A stretch of 64,000 nt of DNA from Candidatus Poribacteria bacterium (GCA_958295945.1 OY282386.1:4210204-4274203); one strand, 5' to 3'. Shown: positions 16,252-63,136, counted from the first letter of the stretch. The notes: generated from the sequence alone by a model not told the origin. Numbers and translations: made by a program.

Positions 16252-16980
16252 ATGGATGTCTTAAAGCAAAAACTGAATGAACTTATAGAAGAACTTTCTG
16301 AAGATAAAAAAACGGTAATTAGAAGTAGACTCAATGACTTGGCATCAGTATACCCATTTAATGAGTATGAATACATTATTTCATCTTTAATGGGTTTCGG
16401 AAAGATAACTCTAGATGATTACTATGAGATCAGAGACGATTACATATCACGTAACATCTATCTATATATTTTTGAGATCGCATCACCAAGAAAATTTGGA
16501 GAAAGGTGGGCACAAGGGCAACTTATGTCTCTTGAACCAGACTTTGTAAAACCCACGAAGAAACTTGACAGTAATTATAGTGGTCAGTACGATATTGCAT
16601 TGAAACACAAAGGTGATCTTATAAAAATTGAAGTAAAAGCATCTAGAGCAGTTGACGAAGAGAGCAAAGAACCACTCTACGTAAAAGCACTATCTTACGG
16701 AAGTGTCCAGCCATTTACTATGAATTTTCAACAAATTAAACCGGCGTGTGCAGATGTATTTATCTGGATTGCTGTCTGGAGGAATGCAATTAAATATTGG
16801 GTTATTTCTTCTACTGAAGTTGAAAGCAACAAGTACTATTCGGATAAACAGCATCGAGGAAATATTGGTGAGGGTCAATTACATATAAAAGACAGTAACA
16901 TTGAAGAGTTTTCAAAATATGAGTGCAAACCTGAAGAATTAAGACAAGCCGTTACTGATGCTTATGAAAGACAGAAATAG
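16252..16980 (+). CDS. Putative type II restriction endonuclease (PD-(D/E)XK fold)
   Basis: A 242-residue protein immediately downstream of the methyltransferase. The segment YDIALKHKGDLIKIEVKAS (residues about 113-131) gives the Asp of the PD motif and the ExK of a PD-(D/E)XK nuclease core (IEVKAS). The N-terminal 60 residues are helical and probably dimerising or DNA-contacting. Length and position fit a type II restriction enzyme paired with its methylase. Recognition sequence unknown. Restriction enzymes diverge fast, so assignment rests on the motif plus context. Confidence 0.8.
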   Translation: MDVLKQKLNELIEELSEDKKTVIRSRLNDLASVYPFNEYEYIISSLMGFGKITLDDYYEIRDDYISRNIYLYIFEIASPRKFGERWAQGQLMSLEPDFVKPTKKLDSNYSGQYDIALKHKGDLIKIEVKASRAVDEESKEPLYVKALSYGSVQPFTMNFQQIKPACADVFIWIAVWRNAIKYWVISSTEVESNKYYSDKQHRGNIGEGQLHIKDSNIEEFSKYECKPEELRQAVTDAYERQK

Positions 16981-17119: not shown

Positions 17120-18214
17120 ATGGAAAAAGTCCTCGTCGCAATGAGCGGTGGCGTAGATAGTTCCGTTACCGCTGCCATGATGGTTGACGCTGGTTATGAT
17201 GTCACTGGCATCACCATGCGCCTCGGTGCACCTGACACTATTGAAGTAGAACCGGAACGTCCCAATTGCTGTTCACTTGAAGGCATTGAGGATGCGCGGC
17301 GCGTTGCCACACAACTTGGGATTCCTTTTTATGGCGTGAATTACGAAGATATATTCCGAGAACAGATTATTGACTATTTTGTAGAAGAATATCTCGTTGG
17401 GCGCACACCGAGTCCTTGTATGGTCTGTAACCGTAAACTCAAATTCGGTAAACTCCTTGACCTCGCAAAATCATTGGAATGTGAGACAATAGCCACAGGA
17501 CATTATGCCAGAATTGAACAGCATCCTGAGACAAGTCGTTATCTCTTACGAAAAGCACTTGATATTAGCAAGGATCAGTCCTATTTCCTTGCTGCACTCA
17601 CACAGGAACAGTTGAGTTGTGCGATGATGCCTCTCGGTGAATATACCAAAGCAGAAGTGCGTGACCTCGCGCGCAAGTATCAGTTGCGAACAGCCGAAAA
17701 GATTGAAAGTCAGGAACTCTGTTTCGTCGCAGATACCAATTATAGAAGGTTCCTTCAAGATAGAATTCCTGAAAAGATTGAAGGTGGCGATATTATTGAC
17801 AAGGATGGCAAAGTTCTAGGCAAGCATCAAGGTGTGCCATTTTATACCGTTGGACAGCGTCGTGGGTTAGGCATCGCAGTCGGCAAACCGCTTTATGTGA
17901 CGAAACTCAACGCAGAGGAAAACACCGTTGTTGTCGGAGAACAAGACGATCTCCTTGAGGATACTATGCACGTAGAACGTATCAACCTCATCTCAATTGA
18001 GAAGATGATAGAACCGATACGCGCACACGTCAAAATCCGTTCTCGTGACGAGGGTGGTCCTGCGACAATTACTCCCGTGAGTGAGACAGAAGCAGTTGTT
18101 AAGTTTGACGAACCGCGCCGCGCAATCACCCCCGGGCAAGCCACCGTCTTTTATGATGGAGAATACGTTCTCGGTGGTGGTTGGATTGTAAGTGCTGGCA
18201 ACACTGCAACGTAA
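17120..18214 (+). CDS. mnmA: tRNA-specific 2-thiouridylase MnmA
   Basis: Adds sulfur to U34 of tRNA Lys, Glu and Gln. The N-terminal PP-loop ATPase motif AMSGGVDSSVTAAMM is at residues 7-21. The two catalytic cysteines appear in PSPCMVCNRKLKFG and QELCFVAD, and the tRNA-binding GHYAR and central HQGVPFYTVGQRRGLGIAVG segments are present. At 364 residues it is full length. The start has AAGG upstream. It is followed closely by a membrane protein and miaA, so two anticodon-loop modification genes sit together. Confidence 0.97.
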   Translation: MEKVLVAMSGGVDSSVTAAMMVDAGYDVTGITMRLGAPDTIEVEPERPNCCSLEGIEDARRVATQLGIPFYGVNYEDIFREQIIDYFVEEYLVGRTPSPCMVCNRKLKFGKLLDLAKSLECETIATGHYARIEQHPETSRYLLRKALDISKDQSYFLAALTQEQLSCAMMPLGEYTKAEVRDLARKYQLRTAEKIESQELCFVADTNYRRFLQDRIPEKIEGGDIIDKDGKVLGKHQGVPFYTVGQRRGLGIAVGKPLYVTKLNAEENTVVVGEQDDLLEDTMHVERINLISIEKMIEPIRAHVKIRSRDEGGPATITPVSETEAVVKFDEPRRAITPGQATVFYDGEYVLGGGWIVSAGNTAT

Positions 18215-18260
18215 ATAAGGAGACAACTCAAATGCAAAATAAGGAGACAACTCAGATGCA
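18213..18260 (+). repeat. 24-bp tandem duplication of a ribosome binding site and start codon
   Basis: The unit ATAAGGAGACAACTCA(A/G)ATGCAA occurs twice head to tail, so two AGGAG sites each precede an in-frame ATG (18232 and 18256). Confidence 0.9.
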
Positions 18261-18810
18261 AGACACATCACAAGATATACCTAACGCTGATACCTTTAAA
18301 AATGCGTTAAAACCTTATGTGATAAGATGGGGTATCGTTTACGGAGTTTTAATTTCCTTTATCGCTTTCATAAATGTTTGTATTTCTGCGCATAATTGGC
18401 AATTTGCACAGTGGCTTATGTTCCTGTTTATGGACATAGGCGCAGTATTTGACGGTGATACGATTCGTTACGGCCTGTTTTCTATAGGAGGAAACCATGT
18501 TAGCATTTTAGCTGCCGGGGTGAATGTAGCAGGCGTGTTTGCATTCGGAGTCAATACCGGGGGAATTTTTGCCATCGGTACAAACACTATTGGTATTATT
18601 GCTATCGGCGTAAATGCTTGTGGTATTATTGCTATCGGCGTAAATGCTTGTGGTATTATCGCTATTGGTCGAATTGCTTTTGGTACCTATACCCTTTCCT
18701 ATTCACATAGGGGTAGAGGTAAATATTTGCTTGCACCCCACCGTCAAGACCCTAAAGCAATAGATTTCTTTACACGCTGGTTTCCTAAGTTGACTCCGAC
18801 TGAATACTAA
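18232..18810 (+). CDS. Membrane protein with glycine-rich decapeptide repeats
   Basis: A 192-residue protein from ATG 18232, or 184 from the duplicated ATG 18256. A transmembrane segment lies near the N-terminus (WGIVYGVLISFIAFINVC). From about residue 90 a run of decapeptides of the form GIIAIGVNAC/GVFAFGVNTG follows, six or so units, a solenoid-like hydrophobic glycine pattern. It ends with a basic tail (SHRGRGKYLLAPHRQDPK). Two repeat units are identical at DNA level, which indicates recent slippage. I do not recognise a function; probably inner-membrane. It lies between mnmA and miaA on the same strand. Confidence 0.7.
   Translation: MQNKETTQMQDTSQDIPNADTFKNALKPYVIRWGIVYGVLISFIAFINVCISAHNWQFAQWLMFLFMDIGAVFDGDTIRYGLFSIGGNHVSILAAGVNVAGVFAFGVNTGGIFAIGTNTIGIIAIGVNACGIIAIGVNACGIIAIGRIAFGTYTLSYSHRGRGKYLLAPHRQDPKAIDFFTRWFPKLTPTEY
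18591..18660 (+). repeat. 30-bp coding tandem repeat
   Basis: GGTATTATTGCTATCGGCG followed by TAAATGCTTGT is present twice without change, with a third diverged start, encoding GIIAIGVNAC units. Confidence 0.85.
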
Positions 18811-18904: not shown

Positions 18905-19822
18905 ATGTCGAAACTCCTCTGTCTCCTCGGTCCCACAGCATCTGGCAAAACTGAAATAGCAATTCAACTTGCCCAACGTCTCAATGCCGAAATTATCTCC
19001 GTTGATTCCCGACAGATATATCGTCAGATGGACATCGGTACCGCCAAACCTACTCCCGAAGAACAACAAGCAGCACGGCACCACCTCATAGATTGTGTAG
19101 ACATCACAGAACCTTTCTCCGTTGCCGACTATCAATCTCTCACAGATACAGCAATCGCTGATATACAAAATAGAGGCAAACAAGTCCTACTCGTCGGTGG
19201 TGCTGGTCTCTATTTCCGAGCGATTGTTGACGGTCTATTTGAGGGACCTGCGGCAGACCTTTCACTTAGAAAACGACTTGAGCAAGAAGTATCTGATCAA
19301 GGTGTTGATGTGCTTCATAATCGTCTCCGCGCTTGTGATCCAGAATCTGCCGAACGTATCCATCCTAACAACGTTATCCGCGTCATCCGCGCCCTTGAAG
19401 TTTATGAACTGACAGGTACTCCTATGTCTGAGCATCAGCAACAATGGAAACCTGAAAACCAACGTTATCCATCTATCGCTTTTGGACTCACAATGCCACG
19501 TGACCTACTTTACCGTCGCATTGAACAACGTGTAGATATTATGCTTGCAAATGGATTGATGGCGGAAGTGGAATCGCTATTAGCAGCAGGATATTCCCGT
19601 GATAACTTTGCTCTACAAAGTTTTGGTTATAAGGAGTTGATTGCATATCTTGATGGGAAATGTACTTATGTGCAAGCGATTGAACAATTAAAACAGAACA
19701 CCCGCCGCTTCGCTAAACGGCAGATGACATGGTTTCGGAAAGACACACGTATTGAATGGATTGATCGTGAGGAGATATCGGATGTTGTTGGGTATATCAT
19801 AGGGAAGATTGGAGATATATAA
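18905..19822 (+). CDS. miaA: tRNA dimethylallyltransferase MiaA
   Basis: Transfers a dimethylallyl group to A37 of tRNAs reading codons that start with U. The ATG at 18905 (MSKLLCLLGPTASGKT) is chosen over upstream starts since it puts the P-loop at the usual residue 8 and gives 305 residues, the family norm. Further motifs are VDSRQIYRQMDIGTAKPT, the catalytic-site loop GGAGLYFRAIVDGL, and the C-terminal FGYKELIAYL and RRFAKRQMTWFRKD. A small palindrome (CCACAT-CTTTT-ATGTGG) follows the stop. Confidence 0.96.
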   Translation: MSKLLCLLGPTASGKTEIAIQLAQRLNAEIISVDSRQIYRQMDIGTAKPTPEEQQAARHHLIDCVDITEPFSVADYQSLTDTAIADIQNRGKQVLLVGGAGLYFRAIVDGLFEGPAADLSLRKRLEQEVSDQGVDVLHNRLRACDPESAERIHPNNVIRVIRALEVYELTGTPMSEHQQQWKPENQRYPSIAFGLTMPRDLLYRRIEQRVDIMLANGLMAEVESLLAAGYSRDNFALQSFGYKELIAYLDGKCTYVQAIEQLKQNTRRFAKRQMTWFRKDTRIEWIDREEISDVVGYIIGKIGDI

Positions 19823-19891
19823 CCACATCTTTTATGTGGGTAAGGTGAAATTCGCACGTGATTGTAAGTAAATGTTGATAAAACGCGATCC

Positions 19892-19920
19892 TTGACTCTG
19901 CCAATAGGTTTTGATACAAT
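19892..19920 (+). promoter_or_regulatory. Sigma70-like promoter for the AAA/PD-(D/E)XK gene
   Basis: TTGACT (19892-19897), a 17-bp spacer and TACAAT (19915-19920) lie 35 bp before the ATG at 19955. This fits the predicted start and argues against an upstream start, which would be inside the promoter. Confidence 0.65.
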
Positions 19921-19954
19921 TAAAGTGCGGATGCTTAGCGAAAAGGAGATAAAA

Positions 19955-21610
19955 ATGAGACGTTTTGGCACACAAGGTCCCGTCAATTCTCAGGAACACT
20001 ATGTCGTTTCACGTTCCGATGAAATTGCCGACTACATCAAACGTGTTGAAGATGGAAAATATGTTGTCCTCTTCGCACCGCGCCAAACAGGCAAAACCAC
20101 CTTCTTTCAAGCAGCTTTAGAAACACTCACTGTTGGCACTATACCAAATACTGCCGCTGCACAAGTCAAATCCGATACAAAGTTTAACTACTTTCCTATT
20201 CAACTTAATTTTGATGTGTATAAGAACACGTCTGTTGCTGACTTTTACGATAACTTTTACCAAGATGTTTGTGAAGCAATTGAGAAACTGTTTCAGCGAC
20301 GCTGTGAGATATTGCCTGATGCTTTAAGTCAATTTATGGAGGACACAAAATTAACGAATCATCATGCAATGAGAAGGTGTTTTAGACATCTTGAACGTTT
20401 ACTAACGCCACAAAAACTCGTCTTAATCATTGATGAATTTGATGGTATACCGCAAGCTGCGCTCAGCGATTTTCTGCATACGCTTCGCCATATCTATATA
20501 TCGGGTAAGCCGCGATGTCCACATAGTGTCGGTATTGTCGGGGTTAAAAGCATTGCGCAGCTCAACTATGACCGTTCAATCTCTCCTTTCAATATCCAAG
20601 ACGAATTCCATCTCCCAAACTTTACCTTTGAACAGGTGCAGGAATTACTTGCACAATATACAGATGAAGTTGGACAATCATTCGTGCCAGAGGTTGTAGC
20701 ATCTATTCATAAACAGACTGCTGGACAACCCGTGCTTGTCAACCGCGTCGCGCAGATTCTCACCGAAGAACTTGATATCCCTATTACAGAACCGATTACT
20801 ATGTCACATTTTTCAATGGCACACTCGGAACTTCTTCACGAACGGAACACAAACATTGAACACCTCACAACAAATATCCGTAGAAAACCGCGTTTTGAAA
20901 GTGTTCTCATGCGAATTATGGAGCAGGATGAGGGTGTCGACTTCAATATGGACGATGATATTATCAGTGAACTCGCGACTTACGGTGTCATCAAGAAATC
21001 TGCTGATGGGATGTGTCAGATACTGAATCCGATTTATCTCTATCGCATCATGAGAACCTTTAAACCAACAGTAAATGGTTTAGAGAATCAATATTTTCCC
21101 AACGGTGATAATGAAGAATTTCTGAATTATGTCACTGCAGAAGGGGTTATTGATATGGAGTCATTACTTGATAATTTTCGAGATTTTATAGTACGCGCGG
21201 GATTTAAAATTCTACAAGTGCCTGATACACCACAAGAATCTGTTGGAAGACATCTCTTGTTTGCTTATCTTGACCAATTTGTTAAACTCATCGGTGGTTT
21301 TATGCACATTGAGGTGCAAACAGGTAGGGGTCGGATGGACATTATAATTACTCACAACCAACGGAAATACATCATTGAAACAAAGATATGGAGAGGTGAC
21401 AGTCGTTATCAGGCAGGTAAGAAGCAGCTCGCAGCATATCTCAACACTGAGGGAGTAAAGGCAGGGTACTATATCGTATTTGATCATCGGGAGAATCCAG
21501 AACCACGCGTAGAAACGGAGATGATTGAAGGGTTGACGATTCGGAGTTATGTTATTCCTGTGCTGCAGGAACTGCCTTCAGGAAGTCAAGACACTCGCGA
21601 AATCAGCTAA
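19955..21610 (+). CDS. AAA-ATPase-like protein with C-terminal PD-(D/E)XK nuclease-like domain
   Basis: A 551-residue two-domain protein starting at ATG 19955 behind AAGGAG. The N-terminal ATPase has Walker A FAPRQTGKTT (about residue 33) and Walker B LVLIIDEFD, as in the AAA-ATPase-like/AAA_35 group, then a winged-helix-like linker. The C-terminus has GRGRMDIIITHNQRKYIIETKIW, giving the Asp and the E-x-K of a restriction-endonuclease-like core. This architecture is widespread and often mobile in bacteria. The biochemical role is not established; genome defence or mobile DNA upkeep is inference. It carries its own promoter and lies next to the DUF488-RecQ operon. Confidence 0.85.
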   Translation: MRRFGTQGPVNSQEHYVVSRSDEIADYIKRVEDGKYVVLFAPRQTGKTTFFQAALETLTVGTIPNTAAAQVKSDTKFNYFPIQLNFDVYKNTSVADFYDNFYQDVCEAIEKLFQRRCEILPDALSQFMEDTKLTNHHAMRRCFRHLERLLTPQKLVLIIDEFDGIPQAALSDFLHTLRHIYISGKPRCPHSVGIVGVKSIAQLNYDRSISPFNIQDEFHLPNFTFEQVQELLAQYTDEVGQSFVPEVVASIHKQTAGQPVLVNRVAQILTEELDIPITEPITMSHFSMAHSELLHERNTNIEHLTTNIRRKPRFESVLMRIMEQDEGVDFNMDDDIISELATYGVIKKSADGMCQILNPIYLYRIMRTFKPTVNGLENQYFPNGDNEEFLNYVTAEGVIDMESLLDNFRDFIVRAGFKILQVPDTPQESVGRHLLFAYLDQFVKLIGGFMHIEVQTGRGRMDIIITHNQRKYIIETKIWRGDSRYQAGKKQLAAYLNTEGVKAGYYIVFDHRENPEPRVETEMIEGLTIRSYVIPVLQELPSGSQDTREIS

Positions 21611-21621
21611 AAAAGAGTGTT

Positions 21622-24600
21622 TTAGTCAATTCCATGTTCATCGCAATAGTCCTGGATAATTGGTAAAAAATCATCGGCGTATTTTTCAACTTTCTTGGGA
21701 CTAACACGATCAATCTGCAGAAATTCTTCTTCTGTTTGCGGAAAATAGGTTGCCATATCTTTCAACGTATTGTTCCAAAAGATGAAAAACGCCAAAACTC
21801 CTTTCTCATCAGCAACTGTTTTACGCTTTTCTCGAAGCCGATCAAAAAGCTCCTGAGAATATCCACTTTGTCTTTCGGAGATAACCTCAGAAGTATTCAA
21901 TGTTTCCGGTGCCTCCGCTGTTGAGTCAATTCCATGTTTCTGGCAATAGTCTCGGATAATCGGTAAAAAATCATCGGAGTATTTTTCAGATCGCTTGGGG
22001 CCAACACCAAACATTGGTTTGAACGATTCTTCAGATATTGGAAAATAGGTAGCCATTCCTTTTAGTGCTTCATCGTGAAAGACCTCATAGGGCAGTACAC
22101 CTTTTGCTTTAGCGATTTTGTCTCGTTTGGTCTGGAGTAATTCGAAGAGTTCAGGGGAATATTCACTTGGTTGTTCGGATGTGGCATTATAAGTATCAGA
22201 TGTTTCAGATACGTCCTCTATAGAATTAATCCCATGTTCTTTACAATAGTCTCGGATAATCGGTAAAAATTCATCGGAGTATTTTTCTGTTTTCACCGGT
22301 CCAACACCACGAATTTGTATAAAAGCTTCTTTGGTTTGTGGAAAATCTGACGCTATCGCTTGCAATGTCGTGTTGTGAAAAATACAGAATGCTGGTAACC
22401 GTTCTTGATCTGCTATACTTTTGCGCTTGATGCAAAGTCGATCAAAAAGTTCAGGAGCATATGTGTTTGATTCTTTGGGTGTTGGTTCATAAGTCTTTAC
22501 CACTTTGGTTACTTGATTTACCTTATCCACCGGAAGTCCCCAAAACTTCTCTTTGTTTTTTAATACATCCCACCCTTTTTTTGTCAAACGAAGACTACCG
22601 TACCGTGAATCTCGCTCTAACAGTTCGTGTTTAAGGAATTGATCTGCTAAATATCGCCACTGCTCCTTGTTGTACTCTTTACCTTTACCATAGGTCTTGA
22701 TTTTATCATGGTCGTTATCAAGAATCTTGTTACGCTTTGAGCCCCGTAAAACATCAACAATATATACTTCCCCGAAAATCTGATTTGTCCGGTAAACGCC
22801 AGACATAAATTTTTGCGCTGGTTCTGTCAAATCAATCCTCTCCATTTCAGAATTTTGGCAGTTGTCACACATTCCACAATTCTGTGTCTCGTATTCTTCC
22901 CCGAAATAGCTTAACAATTCCTTACGGCGGCACTCTACTGAAGTCGTCCATGAAACAAGCGTTTGCAATCTCTTAAGTCGTCCTTTCCTCTCAGATGGTG
23001 AGCCTTGATCAATAAAGTCGTAGATAATTTCGGCATCTCCATTATCAAATAGCAAAAGACACTCTGCTCGGATCCCATCTCGGCCTGCACGTCCAATTTC
23101 TTGATAGTAAGATTCAGGATTCTTTGGTAATCCAGCATGTAGGACAAATCGTACATCTGCTTTATCTATACCCATCCCAAACGCAATTGTAGCAACTATC
23201 ACTCGGGTGTCACCATTAATGAATGCCTCTTGATTTTGTTTGCGGGTTTCACCATCAAGTCCTGCGTGATAGGGCAGTACCGAAATCCCATGTGCTACTA
23301 AATCCTGATAAAGCGATTCAACTTGTTTTCTCCTTTGACAGTAGATTATACCAGCTCCATTCGTATGCTTATTAAGAAATGTTAATGTTTGCCCGAGTAA
23401 ATTAAACCTTGGATCAACGGCAATAAAAAGGTTTTGTCTGTCAAAACTAGCAATAAACTTGTTGTCATCATGAATTCCTAACAACTGCTTAATATCATCT
23501 TGAACCCGCGGCGTAGCTGTAGCTGTTAGTGCCACACAAACAGCGTTTGGAAAGCATTGACGAATAGAAACTAATTCTCGATAATCTGGACGGAAATCGT
23601 GTCCCCACTGCGAAATGCAGTGCGCTTCATCAATCGCAAGGCATGCGACGTTCGCATCATCAAGCATTACGAGTATTTCAGACTTAACAAGTGTTTCAGG
23701 GGCAAGATAAAGCAGCTTAATTTCACCCTGTCTGACCTTATGCATTGTGGCCACATACTCTTCTTCCTCAATCATAGAGTTGAGAAAAGCCGCACTGACT
23801 TCTTTCTGTTCCAACTGCATCACTTGATCTTGCATGAGGGCAATCAGTGGAGAAACAACCACAGTTAATCCATCAAAAATGAGTGCTGGCAATTGATAGC
23901 AGAGTGACTTTCCACCCCCTGTTGGTAGAACAACCAAGGCATCTTGTCTGTTGAGGATATTATCAATGATCGCCTTCTGAAGTGGGCGAAAATCTTCAAG
24001 CCCAAAAACATTTCTAAGGATTTTTAAAGGATTTTGTGTTAAATTCGGGGATGGTGGCGGTGGAATTTTTCCGAGCGGTTCCGGAAGCACTTGTTCCACC
24101 TCTTCAAAAAACCATCCGGAAATTTGCACGTAGCAACGCAGTTCAACGTGTGGCGTATTGTCTGATCGCCACCAATGAGCAAGTGACACACGCAGAAGTG
24201 TGCCTTTTGGAATTGCCCTGGGAGGATCTTGATAGCCGACAAAAGTGAGCGTACAACCACCATTTTCAGTCGGATAACGATAACGTAGTTTCTTTTTATC
24301 TGTTTCAAGGATGAGTTCCTTATCTGTTCGCCAAAACATGGTGCTGTAAGGTAACACATCACTCCCAGGTGGAAGGTAGAGCGAGCCGCTGTCTGTAATT
24401 TTCAGTAAGCCTTCATACAACTTCAACGGATTCCCAGTTTTTGGCGGCATCAATAGTTCAATTGCACCGATCAACTCTCTCGTGTCTTCCATCCTATAAA
24501 GCCGTGACTTACTATGGACGACAAAATTCTCGTTATGCGGCGGAGTCAATGAAGTTTCCGGCTCACCAGTAATTTCCCAAACATCGCCAACTTCATATTC

Positions 24601-24726
24601 TCTATTAGCACCGTCACGCGGATCAGCGTTAAGTGGAATAAGTCGGACGCTTTCCCCTTTTTCTGTTATCCCACCGATACATGCGCCACTACCCATTCGC
24701 GTTTTAGCAACAATCAATACTCTCAT
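21622..24726 (-). CDS. RecQ-family helicase with extra N-terminal domain and three HRDC domains
   Basis: A 1034-residue 3'-5' DNA helicase. Residues 1-205 form an additional beta-rich domain (start MRVLIVAKTRMGSGACIGGI) that I take to be the dual-OB-like module found next to DUF488 genes. Then comes the RecQ core: Q-motif region, Walker A LPTGGGKSLCYQLPA (about 265), DEAHCISQWGHDFRPDY (about 368), TATATPRV, and the motif VI QEIGRAGRDG. The zinc-binding cysteines lie at about 599-624 (CRRKELLSYF..NCGMCDNCQ), followed by a winged helix and three HRDC-type domains spaced exactly 100 residues. Typical RecQ has one HRDC. The start overlaps the upstream DUF488 stop (ATGA). Confidence 0.93.
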   Translation of the reverse strand: MRVLIVAKTRMGSGACIGGITEKGESVRLIPLNADPRDGANREYEVGDVWEITGEPETSLTPPHNENFVVHSKSRLYRMEDTRELIGAIELLMPPKTGNPLKLYEGLLKITDSGSLYLPPGSDVLPYSTMFWRTDKELILETDKKKLRYRYPTENGGCTLTFVGYQDPPRAIPKGTLLRVSLAHWWRSDNTPHVELRCYVQISGWFFEEVEQVLPEPLGKIPPPPSPNLTQNPLKILRNVFGLEDFRPLQKAIIDNILNRQDALVVLPTGGGKSLCYQLPALIFDGLTVVVSPLIALMQDQVMQLEQKEVSAAFLNSMIEEEEYVATMHKVRQGEIKLLYLAPETLVKSEILVMLDDANVACLAIDEAHCISQWGHDFRPDYRELVSIRQCFPNAVCVALTATATPRVQDDIKQLLGIHDDNKFIASFDRQNLFIAVDPRFNLLGQTLTFLNKHTNGAGIIYCQRRKQVESLYQDLVAHGISVLPYHAGLDGETRKQNQEAFINGDTRVIVATIAFGMGIDKADVRFVLHAGLPKNPESYYQEIGRAGRDGIRAECLLLFDNGDAEIIYDFIDQGSPSERKGRLKRLQTLVSWTTSVECRRKELLSYFGEEYETQNCGMCDNCQNSEMERIDLTEPAQKFMSGVYRTNQIFGEVYIVDVLRGSKRNKILDNDHDKIKTYGKGKEYNKEQWRYLADQFLKHELLERDSRYGSLRLTKKGWDVLKNKEKFWGLPVDKVNQVTKVVKTYEPTPKESNTYAPELFDRLCIKRKSIADQERLPAFCIFHNTTLQAIASDFPQTKEAFIQIRGVGPVKTEKYSDEFLPIIRDYCKEHGINSIEDVSETSDTYNATSEQPSEYSPELFELLQTKRDKIAKAKGVLPYEVFHDEALKGMATYFPISEESFKPMFGVGPKRSEKYSDDFLPIIRDYCQKHGIDSTAEAPETLNTSEVISERQSGYSQELFDRLREKRKTVADEKGVLAFFIFWNNTLKDMATYFPQTEEEFLQIDRVSPKKVEKYADDFLPIIQDYCDEHGID
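21640..22510 (-). repeat. Triple 300-bp in-gene repeat encoding HRDC domains
   Basis: Conserved stretches recur at 21669, 21969 and 22269, an exact 300-bp period. Each encodes GVGPxxxEKYSDDFLPIIRDYC-like text at the end of an HRDC domain. Confidence 0.85.
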
Positions 24727-25214
24727 GGCAAAATATTTTCAACCTCCAAATCAAATGTTTGCTCCAATTTATCTGCTACCAATGAGCGGTGGCATGCCTC
24801 TGGTGCAGTTTCAACACAAAACAGTGCAACAACCTTTGCATCCGATTCTAATTCCTCAAATAGACTTTTAGGATCAAATAGATCAAGACATTCAGTGCGA
24901 TATGCTTCAATGAACACCTCACCGAGTTCAGTCCGTTTCCGTTTAGCAGTCTTAGTTGCTTTGTCGGAAACGACTTGTTTCTCTCGAACAGTTTTTGTAG
25001 GTGCGAGGTCTTTACGATGAATATATCGGATACCAAGTTCGGCAAGTCGTGCTTGCAGCCGCTGACTATTCGCAAATGCATAGGTCGAACCACGGACACC
25101 GCGCCGACTACGAATATCGCAGAAGGTATCAACCTTTGCTTTGCACAGAGCGTCAAAAAAACTGATCTCATCAAAACCGTATACACCGATGGTAACTACT
25201 TTGATCTTTTTCAT
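24723..25214 (-). CDS. DUF488 family protein, second of the pair
   Basis: A 163-residue protein with the DUF488 hallmarks: an N-terminal TIGVYGFDEISFFDAL, DIRSRRGVRGS, a middle LAELGIRYIHRKDLAP, and the C-terminal putative catalytic signature CVETAPEACHR (C-x-E...C-H-R). The family is uncharacterised biochemically; the conserved Cys and His suggest an enzyme. Its stop codon overlaps the helicase start by 4 nt, and it begins 6 bp after the other DUF488 gene, so all three form one operon. Confidence 0.85.
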   Translation of the reverse strand: MKKIKVVTIGVYGFDEISFFDALCKAKVDTFCDIRSRRGVRGSTYAFANSQRLQARLAELGIRYIHRKDLAPTKTVREKQVVSDKATKTAKRKRTELGEVFIEAYRTECLDLFDPKSLFEELESDAKVVALFCVETAPEACHRSLVADKLEQTFDLEVENILP

Positions 25215-25220
25215 AGAATA

Positions 25221-25775
25221 TTAGTTATGTTTCTTACGTGAGTGAAACGTCTCCTCCCCAAACAAATTCATCTGTCCACCCGTAATCCTATCAATGATCT
25301 GCTCCTGCGTCATCTCTTCACTGTTTTCATCAATATGGACAACAGGCAAATCCTCATCAGTGAGGGTAGCACTGATAAGTTTCGTGCGATGGCAATGTTC
25401 CGGTTTCCCCTCAGCACACATAAGTGCAACACGCTGCTGTTGCGTCCAAGCAGTCCGCAGACGTTCAATACCTTGCAGATAGAATTCCGCCTTCTTAACC
25501 TTTTCATAATCAACAATTCCGTTGACATAACACGATTCATCATCAGGTTTCCCACCGAGTAGATCTCCCATATACACATACCGAATACCGTGCTGTTCCA
25601 ATTCATTGGCAAGCTGGTTTTTGGAGAACTCTGGCTTATACCCCGAATGTGGCACTGAGCGAACATCAATAAGATATGCAATCTCATATTGTAAAAGAAC
25701 ATCAATAAACTCAGAAATGGAACGGCTTCCATAGCCTATCGTCCAAATTGGAATGGTGTCTGTTTTCATATCCAT
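25221..25775 (-). CDS. DUF488 family protein, first gene of the operon
   Basis: A 184-residue DUF488 protein: TIGYGSRSISEFIDVLL at the N-terminus, IDVRSVPHSGYKPEFSK (the more usual DVRS-P-S form), GIRYVYMGDLLGG, and CAEGKPEHCHRTKLIS near residue 125. It is divergent from its neighbour, so this is not a recent duplication. It leads the operon with the second DUF488 and the RecQ-like helicase. The C-terminal tail (QMNLFGEETFHSRKK) resembles the peptides by which partners bind other proteins (inference). Confidence 0.87.
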   Translation of the reverse strand: MDMKTDTIPIWTIGYGSRSISEFIDVLLQYEIAYLIDVRSVPHSGYKPEFSKNQLANELEQHGIRYVYMGDLLGGKPDDESCYVNGIVDYEKVKKAEFYLQGIERLRTAWTQQQRVALMCAEGKPEHCHRTKLISATLTDEDLPVVHIDENSEEMTQEQIIDRITGGQMNLFGEETFHSRKKHN

Positions 25776-26142
25776 AATAGGTAAATAATATCATAAAGAC
25801 CGCTAATAATCAACCGAATTTACTACACGGGTATGTCCACTCTTATTTGATAGGTCCATATCGCGATTCGGAGATCGCTCCTACCGATTCCCGATTTCTT
25901 TGGTGATTCACAATTTTAGAGTTAACACACCCCTGATACCAAAATTTCCTTGCTATCTTAATAGATAATTTGTTATATTATATAAAAAATATTGATTTGT
26001 GTTGAAAGTGCATCAGTTCTTGTTTCTTAAAACATTTTTATAACATATCAGTCTAATACATAAGGTCTATCATCCAATTGAAGAAAACCCAAGAATTTCT
26101 TATATTCACTCCAATTAAATGGATTAGGACAGAGGAGAAATA
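25776..26142. other. Gap between divergent DUF488 operon and DUF4175 gene
   Basis: An AT-rich divergent promoter region. It contains one GCGAT-TCGGAG-ATCGC palindrome near 25864-25879 of the dispersed type. No gene is visible. The DUF4175 ribosome binding site (GAGGAGAA) is at its right end. Confidence 0.5.
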
Positions 26143-29100
26143 ATGAGCACAAGAGAAGGTTACGCAGAACTACAGACAAGAATAATGGACGCGCGACGTG
26201 TATGGAAACGGAGTCTATTTTGGACAGGTTTAGCTATTGTCTTGATTGGACTCTTGGCAATTCTAATTGGAGAATCAATCGTTGATTGGTTGATGCCGCT
26301 ACCAAGTCCTGTACGCGTGGTAATACTCGTTGGGATAATTGGAGCGACACTCTATCTACTTTATAGACACTTAATCCAACCCTTGAGAGCATCACTAACA
26401 CTGCGAGATGTGGCTCTGAACGTTGAACAAAGCCATCCAAACCTTGAAGACAGACTTGTAAGTGCAGTCCAATTCGGTGCTCGTGAATCGGATGATCCGA
26501 TTGAATCACACATGCTTCAACGTTTACTTGAAGATACAACCGAACGGATTAAAGGTATTGACTTCAAAGCGACGGTTGATCACAGTCGCACCCGTAAGTA
26601 TGTCGGTATTGCATTTTTAGCCGTTGTAGGATGTTGCTTGCTTTCACTCCTTTTTCCAACAGAAACCCGAATAAGTTTAATGCGAGTCCTTGTACCATGG
26701 GAAAAAACTGACCCGATTTTGACTACAAAAGTTAATGTTACCCCCGGAAATGCGCGCATCCTGCGCGGAAAAAGTCTACCTATTGAAGTAATTGTTACAG
26801 GCAAGGATGCAGAGAAAGTGGTACTGACATATTATGACAAAGACACACCACCGACTGCAGAAAATGAAGGAAGTAAACAGGAAATCAATATGTTGCAGAA
26901 CCCCGAGGACAAACGCGGGTTTGCCTATGAAATATTCAATATAGAAGCAGACATGGAATACTATGTTGTAGCAAATGAAACCACCTCTGAACGCTATACC
27001 GTTGAAGTGTTTGAAATGCCACGAGTAGAAGATATCTCTGTCTCTTATGTATATCCTGAATATACAGATCTTTCGCCTGTTGTGCAACAGGGAAGTGGTG
27101 ATATTCAAGCAGTCATAGGTACAACAGCAGAAATCCGTATGACAACCAATAAGGTGATACAGAAAGCAACATTCACCCAGCAAAATTCAGCAAATACAAT
27201 GGCGATAGTAGAAGATAACACCGGTGAAGCAGCTGGGACAACATCCCTTGACATGAACATTGCAGATGGCAATATTCTTACACGGACCATAGATGTGCGT
27301 GAAGATGGTAAATATACCGTTGAATTATTCTGTATTGATGAGTTCAAGAATGAGATACCGATTGAATATACCGTCAAAGCGTTGCCTGATAATGTCCCCG
27401 AAGTGGTAATCAAAGAACCCGGACGCGATGTCAAAGCATCAAAATTGGAAGAGGTAGAAATTATTGCTGAGGCTACAGATGACTTCGGCGTTGATGAGTT
27501 AAACCTTATGTATCGCATCGGTGCGGGTGAATTGAAAGAGATTCCTTTAGAATCTACTGGTGAAAATGCTGATATAAGCTCAGGTAAACACCTGCGGTCT
27601 GGCACATATACCTTCTATTTGGAAGAGTTTGATGTTGAACCTGGGGAAGTGATCTCATACTATGCACATGCTATTGACAATAATACGCTAACTGGACCAG
27701 GTGAAGCGAGTAGTGAAATTTACTTCATAGAGATCAAACCCTTTAATCAGCGGCTTGAAGATGGCGGACAAGTTGAAGCTGAAGAAAGTATGCCAAATCC
27801 TATGTTGGAGATAATTGCATCGCAGAAGCAAATTATCAGAGAAACTTGGAAGCACATCAACTCACAACCGCCATCGGTTACGGATGAATATAGGACTGCC
27901 GTTAAACAGACCGGAAAAAAACAATCTGACCTGAAGGATAAAACGCAACGTGTTGCGGATGAGTTAAGTATGGCGATGCAAGAGCTGCAAGTTGACCCAG
28001 AAATCATGATGAACCTTGAAGAAGCGATTGATAAGATGGGAGAAGCGAGAGATAACTTGAACGCTGTCCAACCTATAGAGGCAATGCCACCTGAACAAGC
28101 TGCACTGGAGCTTCTCAATAAAGTCAATCTTGCGATACCTAAAGTCCTGATGCAGGCGAGAGCCAGCCAACCTCAACTCGCTGAGAACTTTGAAATTGAA
28201 ATGGAGGAGCTTGAAAGTGAACTTGAGCAAGATCAGGAAGAACTTGAGCAGGAGATGCAAGAACAGACCCAGGAGATGTTAGACCAAGCACGTGAAATGC
28301 TATCACAACAACAAAATCTCAATCAACAGAGTCAAGAGTTAGGGAGACAAGATCAACCTTCTCCGAGTGATATGCAACAGAATAGCCAACAGCAGGGACA
28401 GTTATCTCAGCAAGCACAACAGATGTCAGAACAACTCTCCCAAATGCAGGGCAATACCCAAAATCCTCAACAACAACGTCTCAGCCAAGCCGGACAGTCG
28501 ATGCAACAAGCAGGCGAACAGATGCAACAGGCATCACAAGGGATGCAACAGCAACAACCTCAGATGAGTGCCGCGAAAGGTGAAAAAGCAGAGGAAAGAC
28601 TTGAGGAAGCTATAGATCAACTTGAAAGAGCTGCAGCTGAATTCTCCGATAACGCTCTTGAAAGAGCTAACCAACAACTCCAACAGTTGACTGAGGAACA
28701 ATCCGTTGTTCAACAACAAACACAAGAGTTGAGAAATAGATCGCGTCAATCGGGTATGACTCCTGATGATTACCGTCAAGCATCAGAACTTGCAAATGAG
28801 CAGCGACAACTGCAACGCGACTTAGAATCGCTTGAAGAAGATTTAGGCAACCTTCAACAACAACTCAACCAAGACAATCCAGAGGCAGCGGAAAATGTCT
28901 CAGATGCATCAAGACGACTTGCGGAAGAACAGACATCGGAAGATATGGCAACCGCACAACGCGCCCTGCAATGGCGTAGTTTGCAATCCGCAGATCTGAA
29001 TCAGCAAGAAGTACTTGAAACGCTTCAAGAGACACAAGCAGATCTTCAACAGGCAAGAGCCAATATGGCAACTAATGAAGAAGAACAATTGGAAGCTGCA

Positions 29101-61030: not shown

Positions 61031-63136
61031 TTATTTCAAAATCAACATCTTACGCGTTGCGGAGAATTCTCCTGCAGTTAAGGTATAGAAATAGACTCCA
61101 CTTGATACAGCCTCACCAACATCATTTTTGCCATCCCAATATGCCGCACGGCTACGATTTTGATAGAGTCCGGCAACCTGATTTCCCAAGACCAATGTCC
61201 GAACTAACGTCCCATCTGCAGAATAGATGGATATGGAAACAGATTCAGGTGTTGCCAACTGATACGGTATCCACGTTTCTGGATTGAAAGGGTTTGGATA
61301 GTTTGGTAAAAGTGCTGTTTTTTGTGGAAGTATGACCGTTAGAAGTTGTTCAAGCACAAGAATCCCTCTTTGAAAAGTAGGATCCGTTGAGTTAACTGTC
61401 CGCGCATCACGCAACCATTGCTGTACATTGAACGCAGAGAGCATCTCTTGTCCCTCTGCATAGATTGCGGGTGCGCCCGCAGTATCTCCAAATGCACCAG
61501 CGACTAAGACAAGGTCTACGATATTGACCGTTCCGTCACCATTAACATCTTCTGGAATGCCGCCTCTATCTCCGAACTTAGTGGCAACAAGCACTAAATC
61601 TTGGATATTGACTTCACAATCCTTATTTACATCTTCTCTAATAATGGTTGTGCAAGTGATGCTTTCACCATCCTCTGTAACAACACTTTTCAATAATTGG
61701 GCACCTTCAATCCAAGCGTAAGATTTATTTCCTTCACTGTTAGATAGAATGACATCTCGTAAACCTATTTTTGAAGTTCTAATTGCTTTGACTTTAAATT
61801 TAATCGTTGCCAGCGTCCCATCGCCATTACTAACATCACCAGATAAGGAAAGCGATGCGAGTTGCACTGTGCCTGCATGTTGATTTGCAATAGGTTGAAC
61901 TGGCACACCGCCAGATAAATAATCTCCGTATTTCGTTTCTACATATTCAAGCGAATCAGGATCAAATTCTATTGTTGCTTGATAACCTGATAGGTTTTTG
62001 CCGTTTGTAATTTTAACATCAAATGCTAATTCTTCCCCAATAGTTAGAGATGGAACTGAATCTGGCAAAATGCTTACAATGGGATAGGATATTAAATCGT
62101 ATAGTAAAACTGTGTCATCACGACCTGAAGCAGCTAATATATTACCGTCAGGAGAAATCGCCATGTTATATTCAAAACTTTCTATGGATAATATCCGTTT
62201 ATATTCAAAAGTTGTAATATCAAGAAAATTTATGCCATGAACATCACTGCTTATAAGTGTATTATTGTCTTGAAAGATAAGTGATGAAATAACCCAGAAA
62301 TTACGGTCAAATTTAAATTTCAAATTCTTTGTTTTGGTATCATGTAAATAAATGTTGTGCAAATCACCAGCAGCTAAAATATTCCCATCTGGAGAATATG
62401 ATACAGAGAAAACTTGATCATCTCTATTTTCAAGTAATACGACTTCGGTATTTTGTTCTGTATTATATATCCAAATACCAAGTCTACAAGCTACGGCTAA
62501 TTCTTTACCGTCTGGAGAATAACTTAATCCTTTAATCCCAGTCACTGTTGTTGATGATGTGGCGAAGGGAACTGATGTGGGACTCGCTTCTGGTGTAACT
62601 ACTACCGATGCATCTGTAGGTAGGACATTTATAGGTGTATCACCTACAGGCAACGCATCTGTATTTGGTTCGTCTACATTTGATTTCCAAAAACGAATTC
62701 CCTTTGGTCCTGCTCCCGCTAAGGTTTTACCGTCCGGAGAAAAGAGGACATAATCTCTATAACCTTCTCCATCAAGAAGTAATAATTTCGGTTCTCCGGT
62801 TATAGCGTCATATACAACATCACCACATACAAGTGTCTTACCATCTGGGGAATACCTAACATATTTCCCATTAACGTCATTAATAGTCAATTTTGCTGTC
62901 TTATTTTCAATATCCCATAGAACTACCTTCCGTACCCAATTGACTACACTTGCTAAAGTCTTACCATCTGGAGAAAAATCCAAATCTACAAAAGGTTGAT
63001 TATCTTGCGTACATAAACGCGCTATTGCATTTTCTGGTAAACTCAATTGCGTGCAACTTTGTGCAGATACATTAAATGAAGATAGATGTATTCCGGAGAA
63101 TAAAGAAAGTGAAATTAGAATGAATAATTTTTTCAA
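61031..63136 (-). CDS. Secreted beta-propeller / cohesin-like / dockerin protein with C-terminal sorting domain
   Basis: 701 residues from TTG 63136 with AAAGGATAA upstream. Signal peptide residues 1-25 (ISLSLFSGIHLSSFNVSA). Residues 40-345 hold WD40-like blades with the repeated SPDGKTLA motif. About 360-490 is a cohesin-like beta-sandwich (SGYQATIEFDPDSLEYVET, GTLATIKFKVKA). About 500-550 is a dockerin-like pair of calcium loops (DVNKDCEVNIQDLVLVATKFG; DVNGDGTVNIVDLVLVAGAFG). The end, from YPNPFNPETWIPYQL to YFYTLTAGEFSATRKMLILK (each only quoted as landmarks), is a FlgD-like/type IX-type sorting domain. Cell-surface assembly or scaffold role is inferred. Confidence 0.88.
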   Translation of the reverse strand: MKKLFILISLSLFSGIHLSSFNVSAQSCTQLSLPENAIARLCTQDNQPFVDLDFSPDGKTLASVVNWVRKVVLWDIENKTAKLTINDVNGKYVRYSPDGKTLVCGDVVYDAITGEPKLLLLDGEGYRDYVLFSPDGKTLAGAGPKGIRFWKSNVDEPNTDALPVGDTPINVLPTDASVVVTPEASPTSVPFATSSTTVTGIKGLSYSPDGKELAVACRLGIWIYNTEQNTEVVLLENRDDQVFSVSYSPDGNILAAGDLHNIYLHDTKTKNLKFKFDRNFWVISSLIFQDNNTLISSDVHGINFLDITTFEYKRILSIESFEYNMAISPDGNILAASGRDDTVLLYDLISYPIVSILPDSVPSLTIGEELAFDVKITNGKNLSGYQATIEFDPDSLEYVETKYGDYLSGGVPVQPIANQHAGTVQLASLSLSGDVSNGDGTLATIKFKVKAIRTSKIGLRDVILSNSEGNKSYAWIEGAQLLKSVVTEDGESITCTTIIREDVNKDCEVNIQDLVLVATKFGDRGGIPEDVNGDGTVNIVDLVLVAGAFGDTAGAPAIYAEGQEMLSAFNVQQWLRDARTVNSTDPTFQRGILVLEQLLTVILPQKTALLPNYPNPFNPETWIPYQLATPESVSISIYSADGTLVRTLVLGNQVAGLYQNRSRAAYWDGKNDVGEAVSSGVYFYTLTAGEFSATRKMLILK

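What the first reader, a model, noticed from the sequence alone, without database searches (positions are those of the whole stretch)
21622..25775. DUF488-DUF488-RecQ operon: candidate uncharacterised DNA-processing or defence system
Two divergent DUF488 proteins, each with a C-x-E...C-H-R signature, are followed by a RecQ helicase with an extra 200-residue N-terminal beta-rich domain and three HRDC domains. Gene spacing is 6 bp and then a 4-nt ATGA overlap, so the three are made together. DUF488 has no established biochemistry. The operon sits beside an AAA-ATPase/PD-(D/E)XK gene and 4.6 kb from a restriction-modification pair, as in defence islands.
Basis: partly seen in the sequence, partly recalled or inferred. 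Interest (0 to 1): 0.7.

Follow-up and report, generated by a model that had tools for sequence, protein, structure and literature searches.

The report
DUF488 pair with DuOB-RecQ helicase
Three genes that are almost always found together in many bacterial phyla encode two related enzymes of unknown chemistry and a DNA-binding protein, here fused to a RecQ DNA helicase; they move between genomes like an anti-virus system and often carry a short tag that looks made for docking on the DNA-replication clamp.

Summary
A tight minus-strand operon encodes DUF488a, DUF488b and a RecQ helicase whose extra N-terminus is the already-named Pfam domain DuOB (PF22557). All 47 DuOB genes in the window's phylum (Poribacteria by matching loci) sit behind the pair. 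The constant unit is DUF488a-DUF488b-DuOB, not DUF488-DUF488-RecQ: RecQ is fused in one clade only (Poribacteria, Chloroflexi, Verrucomicrobia and others), once sits as a separate gene, and is absent elsewhere. The AAA/PD-(D/E)XK neighbour is independent. The unit is the catalogued phage-defence candidate PADLOC PDC-M45 (A=DuOB, B=DUF488a, C=DUF488b), rearranged and helicase-fused beyond PADLOC's DuOB models. Defence-like traits: patchy distribution, plasmids, a prophage, CRISPR/R-M neighbours, and a chromosomal slot that in relatives holds CBASS, pAgo or R-M. New here: DUF488a usually ends in a sliding-clamp-type motif (GQLSLFG; 71 of 91 versus 12 of 569 controls), and some DuOBs carry clamp- or SSB-type tails. 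Best reading: a mobile, replisome-docked DNA(-end)-processing defence complex; chemistry and defence are unproven.

The parts
25221..25775 (-). DUF488a (184 aa), first gene; active-type DUF488, corresponds to PADLOC PDC-M45B
   Evidence: PF04343 7e-22; PDC-M45B 1e-49; C120, E122, C128, H129, R130 invariant in 52 aligned relatives
25386..25418 (-). DUF488a signature loop C120-A-E-G-K-P-E-H-C-H-R130
   Evidence: invariant columns
25260..25274 (-). QMNLF in the C-terminal tail of DUF488a: matches the sliding-clamp-binding consensus QxxLF (binding inferred, not shown)
   Evidence: 71 of 91 triad DUF488a have Q..[LMI][FY] after CHR versus 12 of 569 control C-termini with Q..[LMI]F; tail has low pLDDT in the AF2 model; consensus from PMC12309361
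24723..25214 (-). DUF488b (163 aa), second gene; corresponds to PADLOC PDC-M45C
   Evidence: PF04343 3e-13; PDC-M45C 1e-13; C133, E135, C141, H142, R143 invariant in 44 relatives
24786..24818 (-). DUF488b signature loop C133-V-E...C-H-R143
   Evidence: invariant columns
21622..24726 (-). DuOB-RecQ helicase fusion (1034 aa), third gene, overlapping DUF488b by 4 nt
   Evidence: RecQ equivalog cut-off passed
24112..24726 (-). DuOB (dual OB) domain, residues 1-205; likely DNA-binding
   Evidence: PF22557 6e-25; AF2 pLDDT 92; Foldseek best matches HIN-200 tandem-OB DNA sensors, E 9e-5, with POT1, Teb1 and BRCA2 lower; VIA-align Z only up to 5.2
22855..24024 (-). RecQ ATPase core and zinc-binding domain (residues 235-624), Walker A and DEAH intact
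22543..22845 (-). RQC domain (residues 628-728)
   Evidence: PF09382 2e-31
21643..22455 (-). three HRDC domains (residues about 758-1028); copy number varies 0-4 among relatives by a home-made HRDC profile
   Evidence: PF00570, 3 stretches

Best explanation
The operon encodes an accessory, horizontally moving DNA-processing complex that most likely acts against invading or mis-replicating DNA. Shown: DUF488a, DUF488b and DuOB form one inherited unit; both DUF488 proteins keep all signature residues; DuOB is a two-OB domain; in one clade it is fused to a complete RecQ helicase; DUF488a commonly ends in a clamp-binding-type peptide. Inferred: DUF488a's tail docks the complex on the DnaN sliding clamp at replicating DNA; DuOB grips single-stranded DNA or a DNA end; RecQ unwinds 3' to 5' to expose it (in lineages without the fusion, a host helicase or none); the two DUF488 cysteine enzymes, of the rhodanese/phosphatase superfamily, then change the terminal phosphate or sugar of the DNA end or of a nucleotide, blocking replication or repair of the invader or marking it. 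The exact reaction is not known.
For: One unit: 79/80 DUF488b loci have DUF488a and 79/80 have DuOB; 47/47 DuOB genes in the window's phylum have the pair; the triad also occurs in Rhodothermus. Coupling to RecQ arose as a fusion (54 of 80 loci, one clade in the tree) and once as a separate adjacent gene (L055). Enzymes: invariant residues; the DUF488a model aligns with diphthine-synthase/precorrin-methylase folds and KAP phosphatase, Z 8.4-9.5. Docking: QxxLF tail 71/91 versus 12/569; it recurs in other sequence contexts (QLTMF, QLQLF, QFNLF, QIEMF) and on the extra DuOB of tandem-DuOB loci (QIPLF, QPSLF); other DuOBs end in SSB-like tips (DDLPF, EDSELPF). Defence: same families as PDC-M45; beside CRISPR type III on pRMAR01 and Csm6/Csx16/Cas1 on pAt1, beside TIR or RloB genes; on a prophage contig; the miaA-DUF4175 slot in relatives holds CBASS, pAgo, type I/II R-M or PDC-M19; patchy: 47/85, 45/400, 11/398 genomes.
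Against: No activity has been measured for any component. Bacteroidetes and several proteobacterial DUF488a keep only xxDLF/xxxLF, without the Gln that matters most for clamp binding, so docking may not be universal. In the window's own family the triad often stays at the same chromosomal slot, as a resident repair gene might. RecQ is absent from most phyla's versions. Only 5 of 16 triad-lacking slots examined show other defence genes. Fold matches for DUF488a and DuOB are weak.
Confidence: 0.5

Rival explanations
1. Accessory DNA-repair or fork-restart complex, not defence: the clamp-docked DUF488 pair cleans blocked DNA ends and RecQ restarts forks; patchiness is ordinary gene loss.
For: Clamp-type tail, RecQ/RQC/HRDC architecture and OB folds are all replication-repair features. 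In the window's family the triad is syntenic with miaA/DUF4175 in many genomes. In some relatives DUF488a survives alone with its tail (8 of 16 triad-lacking slots).
Against: Occurs on plasmids and a prophage contig, beside CRISPR and R-M genes, and swaps with known defence systems at one slot. A second RecQ-family gene is present in the genome. Very sparse in other phyla.
Confidence: 0.28
2. DNA-modification (self-marking) system: the DUF488 pair installs a modification on DNA opened by RecQ and held by DuOB, and a separate nuclease restricts unmarked DNA.
For: Other members of the wider clade (DUF4326) are argued to bridge NAD-derived signals and DNA modification (PMC7824862). R-M genes are frequent neighbours. 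A PD-(D/E)XK gene is adjacent in the window.
Against: No nuclease is constant: the AAA/PD-(D/E)XK gene is missing from several triad loci and present where the triad is absent.
Confidence: 0.12
3. Nucleotide-signal system: the DUF488 enzymes process an ADP-ribose-like or cyclic nucleotide signal and DuOB/RecQ is the sensor of foreign DNA.
For: On small plasmids the partner of DuOB-DUF488 is a DUF4326 protein, fused to a minimal SLOG nucleotide-binding domain in Moraxella. DUF4326 is predicted to process ADPr phosphates (PMC9503650).
Against: The window version has neither SLOG nor DUF4326, and helicase and clamp features point to DNA as the substrate.
Confidence: 0.1

Closest known systems
PADLOC candidate PDC-M45 (DuOB + DUF488 + DUF488)
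   Same: Same three protein families; DUF488a hits PDC-M45B at 1e-49 and DUF488b hits PDC-M45C at 1e-13; proteobacterial M45A proteins are DuOB by Pfam.
   Different: Gene order a-b-DuOB instead of DuOB-a-b; DuOB fused to RecQ; the window DuOB is not detected by the M45A models.
PADLOC candidate PDC-M19 (DUF488-containing M19A + M19B)
   Same: DUF488-bearing protein beside a second small protein; found in the same miaA slot of a relative (L194).
   Different: A single DUF488 protein; M19B has no Pfam DuOB match.
DuOB-DUF488-(mSLOG-)DUF4326 cassette of Acinetobacter, Klebsiella, Salmonella and Moraxella plasmids
   Same: DuOB and a DUF488 protein in one short operon.
   Different: DUF4326 replaces the second DUF488; no helicase.
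DNA helicase RecQ (E. coli type)
   Same: ATPase, zinc, RQC and HRDC domains; passes the NCBIfam RecQ equivalog cut-off; PDB relative 1oyw.
   Different: N-terminal DuOB, three HRDC domains, operon with two DUF488 genes; a second RecQ-family gene exists in the genome.
Rhodanese-phosphatase superfamily, RapZ-C/DUF488/DUF4326 clade (Burroughs and Aravind 2023, from memory; paper not held)
   Same: From memory, that work predicted DNA-end-processing roles in conflict systems for this clade; Pfam now carries 'active/inactive DUF488-N3' models.
   Different: I could not check whether it describes the RecQ fusion or the clamp-type tail.

Membership tests
PADLOC PDC-M45 | M45B and M45C (two DUF488 proteins) adjacent | tested here: met
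PADLOC PDC-M45 | M45A protein by PADLOC profile | tested here: not met
   no M45A match to the window DuOB at E 0.1; both are DuOB by Pfam, so I file it as a variant, not a member
DuOB (PF22557) | match over the curated cut-off | tested here: met
   89 bits against 27, full length
DUF488 (PF04343) | match over cut-off, signature residues kept | tested here: met
Rhodanese-phosphatase superfamily | Rossmann-like fold with a catalytic Cys loop | tested here: inconclusive
   Z 8.8 to KAP phosphatase and 8.4-9.5 to methylase folds, no Foldseek E below 0.001; catalysis not testable
RecQ helicase | NCBIfam TIGR01389 cut-off, RQC, HRDC | tested here: met
   784 bits against 640.2
Dpd (7-deazaguanine) system | DpdF by NCBIfam cut-off | tested here: not met
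   196.6 against 550 bits; the strong PADLOC DpdF hits probably reflect generic RecQ homology
Sliding-clamp client proteins | QxxLF clamp-binding peptide in a flexible tail | tested here: met
   QMNLF in the window protein; 71/91 in relatives; low-pLDDT tail
Sliding-clamp client proteins | measured binding to DnaN | not testable with these tools
   needs a peptide-binding assay
Anti-phage defence system | protection against phage | not testable with these tools
   only context available

The most novel reading that the evidence does not exclude
A widespread defence system in which a two-enzyme DUF488 complex with a new DNA-end chemistry is delivered to replicating DNA through short clamp- or SSB-type tails that move between its subunits during evolution, and which in one clade has captured RecQ as its own unwinding motor.
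Probability: 0.28. Interest if true: 0.8.

Novelty: new variant of a known kind. Interest (0 to 1): 0.52.

Why it matters
DUF488 is a large family without established biochemistry. Here two copies with all signature residues are tied to a DNA-binding protein and, in one clade, a well-understood helicase, with a testable docking peptide. That gives a concrete substrate class (DNA opened by RecQ) and a concrete place (the sliding clamp). PADLOC's DuOB profiles miss this variant, so its spread has probably been underestimated.

Tried and rejected
Literature: no held paper contains DUF488 with RecQ, PDC-M45, or DuOB in the protein sense; the 2023 rhodanese-phosphatase paper is not held. Rejected: AAA/PD-(D/E)XK as part of the system (present without the triad, absent from several triads). 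Rejected: Dpd system. Rejected: RecQ as the core partner. Sequence searches against the PDB found no DUF488 or DuOB relative. DuOB of the window type was not found in phage records or viral contigs by the DuOB query; the DUF488b query found one prophage contig with the full triad. No RNA family or tRNA in the window. A PDC-M45A model search in nine triad genomes found nothing, later explained by model specificity.

Full report
What is there. DUF488a and DUF488b match PF04343, and the helicase carries the full RecQ set with RQC and three HRDC stretches. It passes the NCBIfam RecQ equivalog cut-off. The 'extra N-terminal beta-rich domain' is Pfam DuOB, PF22557. The genome has just these two DUF488 genes and one DuOB, and a second RecQ-family gene elsewhere.

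Is it one unit? In the window's phylum (Poribacteria, judged from matching public loci), 47 of 85 genomes have DuOB. Every one of the 47 has DUF488a and DUF488b directly beside it. A genome-wide scan with DUF488b found 148 relatives, of which the best 80 were kept. Of those, 79 have DUF488a and 79 have DuOB. They span Poribacteria, Latescibacterota, Chloroflexi, Verrucomicrobia, Planctomycetota, Bacteroidetes, a Geobacter bin and an Acidobacteria bin. Rhodothermus marinus plasmid pRMAR01 has the same three genes with a free-standing DuOB, next to Cas1, Cas2, Cas6 and Csm6. Gene spacing is tight: the a-to-b gap is 20 bp or less (or overlapping) in 73 of 81, and 56 of 84 DUF488b genes end in ATGA or GTGA, the start-stop overlap form.

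RecQ is a clade-specific partner. 54 of the 80 loci have DuOB fused to RecQ. In a tree of the concatenated triad, all 26 sampled fused loci form one clade (support 0.65, so moderate), which mixes Poribacteria, Chloroflexi and Verrucomicrobia. One divergent relative (L055) has four genes, DUF488a-DUF488b-DuOB-RecQ, with RecQ unfused and of a different type. So helicase coupling probably arose twice. HRDC number varies from 0 to 4 by a home-made profile.

What kind of thing. DUF488a and DUF488b hit PADLOC candidate proteins PDC-M45B and PDC-M45C. Proteobacterial plasmids (Agrobacterium, Allochromatium, Rhodovastum) carry X-DUF488-DUF488, where X is both PDC-M45A (for example 2e-88) and DuOB by Pfam (for example 6e-62). 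The window triad is therefore a rearranged, RecQ-fused variant of PDC-M45. Its DuOB is too divergent for PADLOC's M45A profiles. I found no experimental paper on PDC-M45 in the held library. From memory, Burroughs and Aravind (2023) placed DUF488 in a RapZ-C/DUF488/DUF4326 clade of rhodanese-phosphatase enzymes and predicted DNA-end processing in conflict systems; that paper is not held. Two earlier papers by the same group on DUF4326 are held and agree in outline.

Enzymes and DNA binder. All signature residues are invariant in both paralogues: C120, E122, C128, H129, R130 in DUF488a (52 sequences), and C133, E135, C141, H142, R143 in DUF488b (44 sequences). The DUF488a model (pLDDT 84) aligns with diphthine-synthase/precorrin-methylase folds and the KAP phosphatase at Z 8.4-9.5; Foldseek gave nothing below 0.001. 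DuOB (pLDDT 92) best matches tandem-OB HIN-200 DNA sensors, with POT1, Teb1 and BRCA2 lower. Its VIA-align Z is at most 5.2, so this supports the two-OB arrangement only.

A docking tail. After the CHR motif, DUF488a has a tail GQ[LM]x[LM]FG...SRKxY. QL[S/D]LF, more generally QxxLF, is the bacterial clamp-binding consensus (PMC12309361). 71 of 91 triad DUF488a have it, against 12 of 569 unrelated C-termini (Fisher p about 1e-63; sequences are related, so this p overstates independence). In divergent Chloroflexota triads the surrounding tail differs but a Q-led motif recurs (QLTMF, QLQLF, QFNLF, QIEMF). In tandem-DuOB loci where DUF488a lacks it, the extra DuOB ends in QIPLF or QPSLF. Three DuOBs end in SSB-like tips, DDLPF twice and EDSELPF once. 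Bacteroidetes and the proteobacterial plasmid DUF488a lack the Gln. The tail lies in a low-confidence, probably flexible region. Binding is inferred.

Defence or repair. For defence: patchy distribution (47/85, 45/400 and 11/398 genomes), plasmids, CRISPR and R-M neighbours, and a prophage contig with the triad between terminase and DnaC-like genes. In relatives without the triad, the miaA-DUF4175 slot holds CBASS (cyclase plus 4TM effector), a short pAgo with TIR/REase partner and type I methylase, type II R-M, or PDC-M19. Other triad-lacking slots hold no defence genes, and eight of 16 keep DUF488a alone, one with a broken DUF488b remnant. The AAA/PD-(D/E)XK gene persists in most triad-lacking slots, so it is a neighbour, not a part. 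For repair: clamp, RecQ and OB features, and long residence at one slot in the family. I put defence-type DNA processing at about one half.

Limits. No structure of a complex, no chemistry and no phenotype were available. Counts of related sequences are not independent events.

Noticed in passing
window 19822-26143 and loci L180, L182, L185, L190, L194: The miaA-DUF4175 interval is a variable site that in relatives holds CBASS, short pAgo with a TIR/REase partner, type I/II R-M, a PDC-M48B-like protein or PDC-M19.
   Followed up: partly
L183, L181, L184, L188, L190 and others: DUF488a survives alone (tail intact) where DUF488b and DuOB-RecQ are lost; L188 keeps an 85-residue DUF488b remnant.
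   Followed up: partly
L258:4443-6115: A viral contig (IMG/VR) with terminase genes carries the full triad, about 4 kb from a gene for a C-terminal DnaN (sliding clamp) fragment.
   Followed up: partly
L260-L262, L264: Acinetobacter, Salmonella, Klebsiella and Moraxella plasmids carry DuOB-DUF488 with a DUF4326 protein (minimal SLOG fusion in Moraxella) instead of the second DUF488.
   Followed up: partly
L241, L239, L242 (Chloroflexota phylum search): Tandem DuOB genes beside DUF488a; the extra DuOB ends in QIPLF or QPSLF, clamp-type peptides.
   Followed up: partly
window 18181-18810 (+): ORF between mnmA and miaA made of repeated A-[IF]-G-x-N-like units, conserved at this place in relatives, no Pfam match.
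   Followed up: no
window 61031-63136 (-): Large protein combining WD40-type propeller, cohesin, weak dockerin, FlgD-like Ig and a type IX-like sorting tail.
   Followed up: no
window 16252-16980 (+): 242-aa ORF behind an Eco57I/TaqI-type methylase with no Pfam match; possible unrecognised restriction enzyme.
   Followed up: no
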